Below, piece by piece: positions 546 to 5,061 of a DNA stretch of 64,000 nucleotides. The position numbers and the translations under genes are program-made. Origin of the DNA: Ectothiorhodospira shaposhnikovii. Lineage in GTDB: Bacteria > Pseudomonadota > Gammaproteobacteria > Ectothiorhodospirales > Ectothiorhodospiraceae. The first letter of the stretch is position 1. Each line of letters begins with the position of its first letter. Location: positions 1 through 64,000 of the forward strand of contig NZ_JAJMLZ010000006.1 in assembly GCF_022227765.1 (NCBI RefSeq), read 5' to 3'. The notes beneath the pieces are model-generated. The model made no database searches. It was given only the letters and a program-made list of their open reading frames with translations, and was not told the DNA's origin.

Positions 546-881
546 TTAGTGTAGCGCAGCCAGCGCGGCTTCCGGGGCCTTGTCCAGCACCTTGAGCAGC
601 GATCTGGCCGCGCCCGTGGGACACCGCTTGCCCTGCTCCCAGTTGCGGATGCTCTCCAGGGGGACATCAATCCGTCTGGAGAATTCGGCTTGGCTTAATC
701 CCAGACGTTTGCGAACACGGCGCACGAAGCGGGCCGTATCCTGCATGCTTGCCTCCTCATCAGCCGCCGCTTGCCTGGCAATATCGGCCTCGGTCGTGGC
801 GTCCACCCGCGCCGGGTCAATGCGCCCGGAAACCAGCGATTCCGGACTCGCGGGATCAATCGTCATTCTGACTGTTTTCAT
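546..881 (-). CDS. brnA: BrnA-type antitoxin, XRE helix-turn-helix
   Basis: About 111 residues from ATG 881 (start MKTVRMTIDP); an in-frame ATG at 896 is also possible. The C-terminal half carries a helix-turn-helix of XRE type: RLGLSQAEFSRRIDVPLESI followed by RNWEQGKRCP. It overlaps the end of the upstream brnT by 26 bp, the standard toxin-first order of BrnTA modules, in which the antitoxin binds the toxin and represses the operon. The HTH form is one of several antitoxin folds paired with BrnT. Function is inferred from this pairing and the HTH. Confidence 0.8.
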   Translation of the reverse strand: MKTVRMTIDPASPESLVSGRIDPARVDATTEADIARQAAADEEASMQDTARFVRRVRKRLGLSQAEFSRRIDVPLESIRNWEQGKRCPTGAARSLLKVLDKAPEAALAALH

Positions 882-1137
882 ACTGCCTGACCTCACGTTG
901 GTTGGCTTTGCGAGCTGAGATGATACGGATGGCGTTGTTTCTTGGCGTGTAGACCACCACGAATACCCGCTGTTCGATCTTGCCCATCAGTTGATAACGA
1001 TCTTCGCCATAGCTATGGCGAAGATCTTCATGAATCACGCGGTCTGGGTCGAAGAAGGCTCTGGCGGCGTAGCCGAAGTCGAAGCCTCGCTCGGCAAAAC
1101 ATGCATCGCTCTTGGATTGATTCCATTCGAAATTCAT
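856..1137 (-). CDS. brnT: BrnT family ribonuclease toxin
   Basis: A 93-residue protein starting MNFEWNQSKSDACFAERGFD. The pattern FEWN..K...CF..RGFDF, a central DLRHSYGEDRYQLMG and a C-terminal RIISARKANQREVRQYE are diagnostic of BrnT, a small RelE-fold ribonuclease that blocks translation when free of BrnA. The length is typical. The overlap with brnA supports translational coupling. A candidate promoter with a 17-bp spacer lies so close upstream that the transcript could start at or next to the ATG. Confidence 0.85.
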   Translation of the reverse strand: MNFEWNQSKSDACFAERGFDFGYAARAFFDPDRVIHEDLRHSYGEDRYQLMGKIEQRVFVVVYTPRNNAIRIISARKANQREVRQYENSQNDD

Positions 1138-1241: not shown

Positions 1242-1407
1242 ATGAGAGAAAAGATTTACGACTACGATCCGGCGGCAGCCCTTGAAAGTGAAGAGGCGAT
1301 TGCCGTATTCCTTGCAGATGTGTTGGAAACAGGCGATGCCGCCTACATTGCGAAAGCCGTGGGCGTGGTAGCCCGCGCCAAAGGCATGACGGAACTTTCC
1401 CTTGACA
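1242..1407 (+). pseudogene. Addiction-module antidote protein, N-terminal part, disrupted by IS insertion
   Basis: Starts at ATG 1242 behind GGGAGG (1232-1237). The 53 residues MREKIYDYDPAAALESEE to AKGMTELS match the N-terminus of the HigA-like antidote family whose members pair with RelE/ParE-type (Gp49-like) toxins. After MTELS the frame enters the end of the IS200/IS605-type element and stops at 1433. The C-terminal part of the same family (GNPTLKTLLTVMRALGVDLT) resumes on the far side of the element. The expected toxin gene upstream is absent, so this was already an orphan or lost its partner. Confidence 0.75.
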
Positions 1408-1560
1408 CCCTCCCCACGGCTAAAGCCGGGTGATTCCTCCTGCGAGACGCTTGTGCCCAAGCGCGAGAATGTTCCTTGCGGCATTGATGTCGCGGTCATG
1501 GCGCGTACCGCACGCCTGACAGGTCCATTCTCTGATTCCAAGTCCTGTCCTACCTTTCGG
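1390..1560 (-). ncRNA. Predicted omegaRNA (reRNA) at the tnpB 3' end and right element end
   Basis: In IS200/IS605 elements the guide RNA of TnpB is made from the 3' end of tnpB and the right end, with the guide read from the flanking DNA. Here the right end on the minus strand carries the hairpin CGGC-TTTA-GCCG and ends at GGGGAGGG (plus-strand 1408). The guide would therefore begin at 1407 and run down into the antidote gene. The limits of the scaffold are a guess; the position follows from the family model. Confidence 0.35.
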
Positions 1561-2556
1561 ACTGCTGTCGCCGATATGACCACAGCACGAACAGGCTTGG
1601 GTGGTATACGCCTCGTCGATTTCTTCAAACCAAACTCCCCGCGCTATCGCCTTGTATTGGAGTTGGGTCTTGAGCATTCCCCAGCCGGCATCCAGCACGG
1701 ACTTTGCCATGCGGGTTTTAGCCAGACTGACACTGCTCACGTCACCGACGAAGATGGCACCATGCCGTTCCACCAGCATGGTGCTGAATTTATGGATGGC
1801 GTCCTTGCGCCGGTGTTTGATTTTTGCGTGGATGGCCTTGATCCGTTTTTTCTTTCCGGCCCGTTGCGCAATGCCCAGTTTTTCTTCCAAAGTTCGATAG
1901 GGCTGCGAGGCCGATAAGCGCTCGCCATCCGAGCAGGTGGCCACGTCCTTGAGTCCAAGATCAATGCCTACCGCACTGGAACCTTCTGATTTTTCCTGAG
2001 CAGCAACCTCTACCTGCACATGAAAGTACCAACGGCCTCGGGCATCCTGGGAAAAACTCCCCGCACGGAATTTAAAGTTTTCAAGCCCGTAGCTGTCCCA
2101 TACCCCAAAACTTTCCCCGGCAAAACGCACCTTGCCGCCTTCAAACCGCGCGGCGCGGGACTTGAACGGAATCCAGCCCAGACTGCGACGAGGGCCACCG
2201 GATACCCGCCAGCGCAGTTTGCTCTTGTTGAACTGTTTTCGAGACTTGCCATGGACCGCGATCACTTCCTGGATCGTGGCCGAACCAATCAGCCATCCAC
2301 GAGCCTTGTTGATTCCGGCCAATGCTTTCTGGATGTCAAAGGGATGCAACCAGACCCCCTGAATCCAGCCCACCTCGGGCACGGGAACATGCCAAGCCTC
2401 ATAGGCCATTTCATTGGCCAGATTCCAAACCTGATTGACCTCGAACCCCATGCGATCAAGCACCTTGGCGTGCCGGTCTTTCACCCGCACGCTCAGGGTC
2501 TTGATGATGGTTTTGGCGGCATCAGTCAACTCAAGGTCTCCAGATAGCGTGCCCAC
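1420..2556 (-). CDS. tnpB: TnpB, RNA-guided nuclease-like protein of IS200/IS605 element, noncanonical RuvC-II
   Basis: A 378-residue protein from GTG 2556, full length for TnpB. RuvC-I is GIDLGLKD (D199). RuvC-III is HDRDINAARNI (D356). A zinc-ribbon has CSCCG (C322, C325) and CQACG (C346, C349). At RuvC-II, where most TnpB have the glutamate of an ExL/EDL motif, the sequence is AIFVGDVSS with glycine at position 271; the following LAKTRMAKSVLDAGW block is typical of one TnpB branch. Glutamates at 311, 312 and 315 (FEEIDEAYTTQ) could take over the role. The start overlaps the tnpA remnant by about 30 bp. TnpB normally uses an omegaRNA from its own 3' end to cut excised donor sites and so retain the element. 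Confidence 0.9.
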   Translation of the reverse strand: MGTLSGDLELTDAAKTIIKTLSVRVKDRHAKVLDRMGFEVNQVWNLANEMAYEAWHVPVPEVGWIQGVWLHPFDIQKALAGINKARGWLIGSATIQEVIAVHGKSRKQFNKSKLRWRVSGGPRRSLGWIPFKSRAARFEGGKVRFAGESFGVWDSYGLENFKFRAGSFSQDARGRWYFHVQVEVAAQEKSEGSSAVGIDLGLKDVATCSDGERLSASQPYRTLEEKLGIAQRAGKKKRIKAIHAKIKHRRKDAIHKFSTMLVERHGAIFVGDVSSVSLAKTRMAKSVLDAGWGMLKTQLQYKAIARGVWFEEIDEAYTTQACSCCGHIGDSSPKGRTGLGIREWTCQACGTRHDRDINAARNILALGHKRLAGGITRL

Positions 2557-2714
2557 TTCTCGCGCTCTTTCGGGCGCTCGGATGTTTGCTGGCTTTCGAT
2601 GTATTGCTTCACCACCGTCAGGGGCGCACCGCCCACCGTGGTCACAAAATAGCTATTGCTCCATAGCGTCGGCAACTTGCGCCGAAGATGCGGGAAGGCC
2701 TCAGGATAACACAA
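2526..2714 (-). pseudogene. tnpA: TnpA Y1 transposase, C-terminal remnant
   Basis: The 62-residue frame contains FPHLRRKLPTLWSNSYFVTT, then VGGAPLTVVKQYIESQQ, matching the C-terminal third of IS200/IS605 TnpA including the helix with the nucleophilic tyrosine (VKQYIE). The N-terminal part with the HUH metal site is missing; upstream lies only the element-end repeat. The product cannot be an active transposase. It overlaps the tnpB start in the tnpA-tnpB order typical of the family. Confidence 0.75.
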
Positions 2715-2781: not shown

Positions 2782-2877
2782 GGTGAGCAAGGCAACCCAA
2801 CACTCAAAACGTTGCTGACCGTAATGCGAGCGCTTGGTGTTGATCTGACGGCACGGCCTCATGGGACAACTACATAG
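2782..2877 (+). pseudogene. Addiction-module antidote protein, C-terminal part beyond the IS
   Basis: In frame from about 2782 the plus strand reads GEQGNPTLKTLLTVMRALG, then VDLTAR, and stops at TAG 2875-2877. The GNPT..TLL.V.RALG.DL motif is the conserved C-terminus of the same antidote family whose N-terminus lies at 1242-1400. Some 10-15 codons that normally join the two parts are not recognisable, so the insertion was accompanied by a small deletion or later decay. Confidence 0.7.
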
Positions 2878-2898: not shown

Positions 2899-2930
2899 CC
2901 CGCCGGGCCGCGCCCATCCCGCGCAGGAAT
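2899..2930. repeat. 32-bp copy of the RAYT gene 3' end (left copy)
   Basis: These 32 bases are identical to 3969-4000, which lie in the last codons of the RAYT gene and encode FLRGMGAARR on the minus strand. The copy is isolated from any transposase frame and lies just downstream of the rpn gene, so the two copies flank that gene as direct repeats. Confidence 0.75.
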
Positions 2931-3942: not shown

Positions 3943-5061
3943 CTACATCACCGCCCGCCGCTCAAACACCCGCCGGGCCGCGCCCATCCCGCGCAGGAAT
4001 TTTGCCTGACGGCAGGCCGCATGTTCCACCAGCTTCGCCGGCTTGCCCACGGCGTGGCCGAATGCCTGCAACAGGCTCGTGCCGTGGGCAATGAAGGCCT
4101 CCGCGTCCATGCCCAGACGATCCAGCAACTTCGGTGTCTGCGCCGGCATGAATCCCCGCTTGGCGGGATGCACGCACCGACCCAGCACCTCCACCAGCGC
4201 CAGATAATCCGCCCAGGCAAAGGGCACCGCCCAGGGCTCCCGGCCGGTGGCATCAAAGGGCATCAGCGGGGCGACGGCAAGGGGCGCCAACCTGTGCTCG
4301 CAACGCAGTGCATCACGCCAGTGCGGGATGTCGGTCCCGGCCTCCCCGGACACCCGTGCCTCGTCCCCCTGGACCGAGTGCTTGGCCAATGCCGCCCGCA
4401 TCCGTGCCTCGGCCTTGTCCGGGCACAGGCGGGCCTCAAGACTGGTGTGCTCGCTGGTTTCCGGCGTGTCGGCGATTCCGGCCCGGATGGGGTTGAGATC
4501 CACATAAGCCATGGCACTGAGAATGGCCTGCTCATCCAGCAAGGCCTGGCTCTTGAAACGACCTTCCCAAAACCGCCCCCGAACCCCGTCCTCGGCATTG
4601 GCCTTGCGGGCGATGGTCTCGTTGAGCACCCGCATGAACCAGGACAGATCCACCAGACGGGAACGATAGATACCCACCCACTCCCGAACCTGGGCCAGTT
4701 CGGCATCGTGGAGGGTGTCCCGGGCCTGTGGGTCCAGATACCGCTGCACCACCGGCGGCCCGGAGAACACGCTGGTCCAGCGGCGCAATACCGCCTCATC
4801 CGACCAGCCCTGAGCGCGGCCCTGATCGATCCGGAGCACGATGTGATAGTGGTTGCTCATCACCGCATAGGCCGCCACGTCGATGGCGAAGACGGCGGCC
4901 AGTTGCCGAATTCTGGCCTCGATCCAGCCGCGCCGGTGTTCGAAGTTCTGGCCGGTGTGGTGGTCCTGCCCACAGAGGAAAGCGCGGCGGACACAGCGCG
5001 ACACCACGTGATACCAGGGCGTGTCGGTGACGGATACCAGTTCTGAGCGGGGTCGGGTCAT
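3943..5061 (-). CDS. REP-associated tyrosine transposase (RAYT), IS200-like Y1 family
   Basis: 372 residues from ATG 5061. The N-terminal Y1 domain starts with TPWYHVVSRCVRRAF and has the metal site MSNHYHIVL (H71-x-H73, the HUH motif). The segment RGRFWEGRFKSQALLDE leads into AMAYVDLNPIRAGI, where Y186 is the expected nucleophile. This arrangement and the single-gene context are typical of RAYT proteins, thought to mobilise REP-type palindromes by single-strand cuts. The C-terminal 170 residues are less conserved. The ends of this gene are close to a cluster of the AAAGTGGGTGTCCTTT repeat, the likely associated substrate. Confidence 0.85.
   Translation of the reverse strand: MTRPRSELVSVTDTPWYHVVSRCVRRAFLCGQDHHTGQNFEHRRGWIEARIRQLAAVFAIDVAAYAVMSNHYHIVLRIDQGRAQGWSDEAVLRRWTSVFSGPPVVQRYLDPQARDTLHDAELAQVREWVGIYRSRLVDLSWFMRVLNETIARKANAEDGVRGRFWEGRFKSQALLDEQAILSAMAYVDLNPIRAGIADTPETSEHTSLEARLCPDKAEARMRAALAKHSVQGDEARVSGEAGTDIPHWRDALRCEHRLAPLAVAPLMPFDATGREPWAVPFAWADYLALVEVLGRCVHPAKRGFMPAQTPKLLDRLGMDAEAFIAHGTSLLQAFGHAVGKPAKLVEHAACRQAKFLRGMGAARRVFERRAVM

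What the first reader, a model, noticed from the sequence alone, without database searches (positions are those of the whole stretch)
1420..2556. TnpB with glycine in place of the RuvC-II glutamate
RuvC-I (D199) and RuvC-III (D356) acids are present, but the RuvC-II motif reads FVGDVSS, with G271 where catalytic Glu is expected. TnpB branches with rearranged RuvC sites and TnpB-derived nuclease-dead regulators have both been described. E311, E312 or E315 could supply the missing acid. Which case applies here decides whether this is a nuclease or a guide-RNA-bound DNA binder.
Basis: partly seen in the sequence, partly recalled or inferred. Interest (0 to 1): 0.65.

Follow-up and report, generated by a model that had tools for sequence, protein, structure and literature searches.

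The report
TnpB with relocated active-site glutamate
This transposon gene makes an RNA-guided DNA-cutting protein whose third catalytic acid has moved about 44 residues along the chain, a rearrangement already described for a large group of such proteins, so it is most likely a normal working nuclease rather than a dead or new one.

Summary
In detail: the minus-strand gene 1420-2556 encodes a 378-aa TnpB with D199, D356 and G271 where canonical TnpB has its RuvC-II Glu. It is not a lesion. Among 111 homologues alignable there, all 90 with Gly271 have Glu315 and all 21 with Glu271 lack it; the two states separate on a tree. E315 lies just after strand beta-5, six residues before the first zinc Cys: the published 'alternative Glu' (Ealt; RuvC-II rearrangement) shared by Fanzors and a D-Phi-G branch of TnpBs. 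One rearranged (RII-r5) orthologue cleaves DNA in vitro (PMC10278001).

The element is otherwise ordinary: IS200/IS605 ends, TCAC left flank, an omega-RNA scaffold with covarying stems, dN/dS about 0.12, and a guide matching the interrupted antitoxin gene, whose uninterrupted homologue carries TCAC directly beside the guide match. Its tnpA is reduced to a C-terminal remnant.

Best reading (0.88): functional RNA-guided nuclease with catalytic triad D199-E315-D356, not a nuclease-dead regulator. Not shown: cleavage, and measured geometry (no coordinates available). Interest low; new member of a known kind.

The parts
1420..2556 (-). tnpB, 378 aa, RuvC acids D199, E315 (relocated) and D356; G271 at the canonical Glu position; zinc ribbon C322/C325/C346/C349
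   Evidence: NCBIfam NF040570 guided_TnpB 228.7 bits (cut-off 100)
1612..1614 (-). codon of E315, the proposed relocated catalytic Glu
   Evidence: position counted from the ORF start at 2556; invariant in 90/90 Gly271 homologues
1744..1746 (-). codon (GGT) of G271, at the canonical RuvC-II Glu position
1404..1473 (-). 3' part of the omega-RNA scaffold / right end (RE) of the element: stem GCGCTT..AAGCGT and subterminal hairpin, ending GTGTCAA; overlaps the 3' end of tnpB (stop codon lies at the hairpin loop)
   Evidence: alignment A3 and pair counts; RE ends in GTCAA throughout the clade
1377..1401 (-). predicted guide, first 25 nt downstream of RE: GGGAAAGTTCCGTCATGCCTTTGGC
   Evidence: matches the uninterrupted antitoxin locus of G009 with 1 mismatch in 25, next to TCAC
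2526..2714 (-). remnant of Y1 transposase tnpA (C-terminal ~60 aa only; the rest deleted), Pfam Y1_Tnp positions 81-121
   Evidence: complete TnpA in the related element of Thioalkalivibrio L006
2735..2786 (-). left end (LE) with subterminal hairpin and flanking TCAC (2783-2786 read on the minus strand)
   Evidence: TCAC adjacent to LE in the Ectothiorhodospira and Thioalkalivibrio copies
1242..1403 (+). 5' part of the antitoxin gene (dnstrm_HI1420 family) interrupted by the element
2783..2876 (+). 3' part of the same interrupted antitoxin gene
   Evidence: blastn to the uninterrupted locus L134 (G009)

Best explanation
The protein is an IS200/IS605 TnpB whose RuvC active site uses D199, E315 and D356. 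The glutamate normally at the end of strand beta-4 (column of G271) has been replaced by one just after strand beta-5, six residues before the zinc ribbon (E315). With an omega-RNA made from the 3' end of its own gene plus the flanking DNA, it should find a site made of a TCAC target-adjacent motif plus sequence matching the guide, and cut it; the natural target is the empty donor or allelic site, so cutting favours retention or copying back of the element. Shown by sequence: the residue swap, conservation, RNA stems with covariation, element ends, guide and target match. Inferred: that E315 binds metal, that DNA is cut, and the TAM (read from element flanks, not measured). This copy cannot supply its own TnpA.
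For: Perfect exclusion between Glu at 271 and Glu at 315 in 111 homologues (90 G/E, 21 E/not E), on separate sides of one tree branch (support 92/93). E315 invariant in the 38-sequence alignment, E311/E312 not. Exactly six residues (AYTTQA) between E315 and C322, the Ealt spacing (PMC10711439). AlphaFold2 model: strand 309-314 ends at E315, strand 194-199 ends at D199, helix 355-371 holds D356; fold matches ISDra2 TnpB-omegaRNA-DNA 8h1j (Z 23.9, rmsd 3.4, 327 aligned) and mimivirus Fanzor2 9b0l (Z 21.6, rmsd 5.6, 343 aligned). Fanzor structures place the catalytic Glu in the loop between beta-5 and the TNB domain. One RII-r5 TnpB cleaves dsDNA in vitro. dN/dS about 0.12. Omega-RNA stems: 54 cells with changes on both sides against 18.6 expected, 0/500 shuffles. 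TCAC next to the guide match in the uninterrupted locus.
Against: No activity data for this protein or for any close relative that I could identify by name. The distance of E315 to D199/D356 was not measured (the tool returns no coordinates); the model's pTM is only 0.49 and the 275-289 loop is under pLDDT 50. The strict published search pattern for Ealt proteins (120-160 residues between DxG and Glu; 12-18 between the zinc CxxC pairs) is not met: here 113 and 20. The omega-RNA hairpin of this copy has one A.G mismatch, and its single-sequence folding z-score is weak (-1.2). Its tnpA is gone.
Confidence: 0.88

Rival explanations
1. Nuclease-dead TnpB-like regulator (TldR type): the RuvC site is broken by E-to-G and the protein only binds DNA with its guide RNA, for example as a repressor.
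For: The canonical Glu is absent; tnpA in this copy is decayed; only one full-length copy in the genome.
Against: A compensating Glu is invariant in all 90 relatives, and both Asp are kept in all relatives whose sequence covers them except L080, whose match ends before there. The clade is mobile and multi-copy with intact ends. The guide still matches the insertion flank instead of a distant promoter, and the neighbours are a split antitoxin gene and a BrnT/antitoxin pair, not a regulated cargo gene such as fliC or csrA.
Confidence: 0.05
2. Active nuclease, but the third acid is E311 or E312 (or D272), not E315.
For: They lie on or beside strand beta-5 or at the old position.
Against: E311 is Glu in 52/90 and E312 in 60/90 only, replaced by Val, Ile, Leu, Lys; residue 272 is Asn in many relatives, including the 94% identical copy. 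E315 never changes.
Confidence: 0.04
3. Decaying remnant: the tnpB is a dead passenger of a degraded insertion sequence.
For: tnpA truncated to its last ~60 codons; a second copy of the right end in the genome is a fragment (L005); a 24-bp loss at the left junction.
Against: Open frame of full length, strong purifying selection (dN/dS 0.12 to L025; 0.11 to L007), intact RE and guide junction.
Confidence: 0.03

Closest known systems
TnpBs with RuvC-II rearrangement / alternative Glu (Ealt), D-Phi-G branch (PMC10711439; RII-r clades of PMC10278001)
   Same: Canonical Glu lost, Glu six residues before the zinc CxxC, D-L-G at RuvC-I, HDRDIN at RuvC-III, Y1 transposase in the intact relative, omega-RNA at the right end.
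   Different: Spacing RuvC-I to Ealt is shorter (113) and the zinc loop longer (20) than in the published search pattern; which RII-r number it belongs to could not be checked (classification paper not held).
ISDra2 TnpB (PDB 8h1j, 8bf8, 8exa)
   Same: Overall fold, D199 and D356 equivalents, zinc ribbon.
   Different: ISDra2 has E278 at the canonical place; 22-23% identity; TTGAT motif instead of TCAC.
Fanzor2 (mimivirus, PDB 9b0l) and pro-Fanzors
   Same: Glu after beta-5 close to the zinc ribbon (literature), same fold (Z 21.6).
   Different: Fanzors have D-P-G at RuvC-I and IS607-type or eukaryotic transposons; this is D-L-G with IS200/IS605 ends in a gammaproteobacterium.
AmaTnpB (Alicyclobacillus; PMC10278001)
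   Same: TCAC target-adjacent motif.
   Different: An exemplar TnpB of that paper, not shown to be close kin; motif sharing is not kinship.

Membership tests
IS200/IS605 TnpB RNA-guided nuclease | Match above curated cut-off to the TnpB family model | tested here: met
   NF040570 228.7 bits, cut-off 100; PF07282 86.6, PF01385 54 bits
IS200/IS605 TnpB RNA-guided nuclease | Three RuvC acids plus zinc ribbon | tested here: met
   D199, D356, C322/325/346/349 kept; third acid at the alternative place E315
IS200/IS605 TnpB RNA-guided nuclease | omega-RNA overlapping the right end, with a hairpin close to the guide | tested here: met
   Covarying stems in 19 distinct sequences, 95.8% of cells paired; RE ends GTGTCAA
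IS200/IS605 TnpB RNA-guided nuclease | Y1 transposase partner and LE/RE ends | tested here: met
   Complete TnpA in relative L006; only a remnant in the window copy
IS200/IS605 TnpB RNA-guided nuclease | Guided DNA cleavage | not testable with these tools
   needs protein and RNA
Ealt / RuvC-II-rearranged TnpB | No Glu at canonical RuvC-II, Glu six residues before first zinc Cys | tested here: met
   G271; E315-AYTTQA-C322; 90/90 in the clade
Ealt / RuvC-II-rearranged TnpB | Published search pattern spacing (120-160; 12-18) | tested here: not met
   113 and 20 in the window protein, counted on the sequence against the pattern; a search device, not a biological definition
Ealt / RuvC-II-rearranged TnpB | Membership in RII-r3 or RII-r5 | not tested
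   classification paper not held
Ealt / RuvC-II-rearranged TnpB | Ealt carboxylate within the metal site | not testable with these tools
   model returned without coordinates; topology agrees
TldR (nuclease-dead TnpB) | RuvC acids lost without replacement | tested here: not met
   D199, E315, D356 all present
TldR (nuclease-dead TnpB) | Guide aimed at a host gene away from the element; cargo gene beside it | tested here: not met
   guide matches the insertion flank; no cargo gene seen
Fanzor / pro-Fanzor | D-P-G at RuvC-I | tested here: not met
   D-L-G
Fanzor / pro-Fanzor | IS607-type transposase | tested here: not met
   Y1 transposase remnant

The most novel reading that the evidence does not exclude
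A single, transposase-less copy kept by selection for a host role: an RNA-guided nuclease fixed in an antitoxin gene that cuts uninterrupted alleles (TCAC + guide match) in incoming DNA, acting as an allele-spreading or defence device with a Fanzor-like active site in a proteobacterium.
Probability: 0.05. Interest if true: 0.4.

Novelty: new member of a known kind. Interest (0 to 1): 0.18.

Why it matters
It settles what a missing catalytic Glu most likely means here: reading only the canonical column would wrongly file a large, mobile proteobacterial TnpB clade (also found on plasmids) as nuclease-dead. The exact G271/E315 exchange gives a simple two-column test that separates relocated from dead sites, useful when mining for TldR-type regulators or compact nucleases.

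Tried and rejected
Direct measurement of the E315-D199-D356 distances: the structure tool returns no coordinates and none are placed in /data. Rfam gave no match at the element. The classification paper that names the RII-r clades is not in the library. A residue-level alignment to mimivirus Fanzor2 9b0l was not printed (only the five best are). The idea that E311 or E312 replaces the lost Glu was rejected on conservation. The idea of a sequencing error or recent G mutation at 271 was rejected because it is fixed in the clade. Clean insertion at the left junction: comparison with G009 shows the insertion point TCAC|GGGAAAG is right but 24 bp between two TCAC motifs on the left side are missing.

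Full report
What is there. The finding's coordinates hold an open frame on the minus strand, 2556 to 1420, 378 codons with a GTG start. It scores 228.7 bits against NCBI's RNA-guided TnpB model (cut-off 100) and matches the OrfB_IS605 and TNB domains of Pfam. In the HMMER alignments to ISDra2 TnpB, G271 falls on E278, the canonical RuvC-II glutamate.

The Gly is a clade state. A scan of one genome per species gave 232 places, of which the best 80 were kept, nearly all proteobacterial, plus relatives from neighbouring genomes and 19 viral contigs. In a joint alignment of 112 proteins, 90 have Gly at 271 and every one of these has Glu at 315; 21 have Glu at 271 and none of these has Glu at 315 (Arg, Pro or Thr instead); one fragment lacks the region. 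Glu311 and Glu312 are Glu in 52 and 60 of the 90. In the 38-sequence alignment used for modelling, E315 is among the invariant columns and E311/E312 are not. On a maximum-likelihood tree of 64 rows the two states need one change, support 92/93; one very long-branch row (L105) makes the deep branching uncertain.

Where E315 lies. Six residues separate E315 from the first zinc cysteine C322. This is the 'alternative Glu' spacing of PMC10711439, which describes Ealt proteins as two groups, one with D-P-G (Fanzors and pro-Fanzors) and one with D-Phi-G. The window protein has D-L-G, hence the second group. The strict search pattern of that paper is missed on two spacings (113 instead of 120-160; 20 instead of 12-18). 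PMC10278001 calls such proteins RuvC-II rearrangements, warns that they should not be assumed dead, and found one RII-r5 orthologue active in an in vitro screen. Fanzor cryo-EM work puts the catalytic Glu in the loop between the fifth strand and the TNB domain.

Structure. The AlphaFold2 model (mean pLDDT 80, pTM 0.49) has strands ending at D199 (194-199), at 272 and at 314, and D356 at the start of helix 355-371: E315 should thus be at the same edge of the sheet as D199, one strand further out than the old Glu (the strand order is taken from knowledge of the RNase H fold, not measured). The best structural matches are ISDra2 TnpB with omegaRNA and DNA, 8h1j (Z 23.9, rmsd 3.4, 327 aligned), and mimivirus Fanzor2, 9b0l (Z 21.6, rmsd 5.6, 343 aligned) (Foldseek). 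Distances could not be measured because coordinates are not returned.

The element. Comparison with copies in Ectothiorhodospira mobilis (94% protein identity), E. shaposhnikovii (97% over the part up to residue 299) and Thioalkalivibrio (78%) fixes the ends: a left end beside TCAC near 2786 and a right end finishing in GTGTCAA near 1402-1404. The Thioalkalivibrio element L006 has a complete Y1 TnpA; the window copy has lost all but the last ~60 codons. Multi-copy relatives in Thiofilum, Vreelandella, Endozoicomonas and others share a right end finishing in GTCAA, while the left flank differs between subclades. The family also occurs on plasmids, annotated there as RNA-guided endonuclease TnpB or transposase.

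The guide RNA. The last 70 nt of the element hold a stem and a subterminal hairpin. Over 19 distinct sequences, 95.8% of cells pair, 54 cells are changed on both sides against 18.6 in shuffles (0 of 500 as high), and sliding the partner by one to three columns destroys the signal. The window copy has one mismatch; its single-sequence folding energy is not exceptional. Part of one stem lies within the tnpB codons, so RNA pairing and protein sequence are constrained together.

Target site. The element splits an antitoxin gene of the dnstrm_HI1420 family. The uninterrupted homologue in a genome of the same genus (G009, L134) reads TTCAC|GGGAAAGTTCCGCCATGCC on the minus strand; the window guide is GGGAAAGTTCCGTCATGCC..., one mismatch in 25 nt. 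So a TCAC motif sits directly beside the guide match in the empty allele, as expected for TnpB. On the left side 24 bp between two TCAC motifs are missing in the window, probably a deletion after or during insertion.

Selection. Against the E. mobilis copy dN is 0.034 and dS 0.275; against the E. shaposhnikovii part 0.012 and 0.106. The protein is being kept functional, or was until recently.

Conclusion. The data favour a relocated, not a lost, catalytic Glu. The most likely mechanism is ordinary omega-RNA-guided cleavage at TCAC-flanked sites with the triad D199-E315-D356. The nuclease-dead reading has no positive support beyond the empty canonical column. The kind is known; this is a new member.

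Noticed in passing
window 1242-1403 and 2783-2876: Antitoxin gene (dnstrm_HI1420 family) split by the element; 24 bp between two TCAC motifs lost compared with G009. In G009 (L134:1205-1504) a small ORF sits just upstream, probably the toxin partner, which has no blastn match in the window.
   Followed up: partly
window 549-1137 (-): BrnT-type toxin with a neighbouring helix-turn-helix antitoxin-like gene.
   Followed up: no
G000:C22:130518-130622 (L005): A 5'-truncated fragment of the same element's right end (97.5% identical over 81 bp) elsewhere in the genome, without the TGTCAA end.
   Followed up: partly
G000:C12:268607-269293 and G000:C3:7584-9186: Two other TnpB lineages with canonical Glu in the same genome; the C3 one lies beside the only intact Y1_Tnp match found.
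   Followed up: partly
L007:3001-3882 / L088: Ectothiorhodospira shaposhnikovii copy cut near residue 299 and followed by unrelated sequence in a 468-codon open frame, so it lacks E315 and the zinc ribbon.
   Followed up: no
window 2899-2930 and 3969-4000: Exact 32-bp direct repeat, next to the split antitoxin gene and inside a RAYT-like gene (3946-5061, weak Y1_Tnp match below cut-off).
   Followed up: no
L105 (G086:C1:9828-10211): A distant protein with both Gly in the 271 column and Glu in the 315 column but otherwise very divergent; may be an independent relocation.
   Followed up: no
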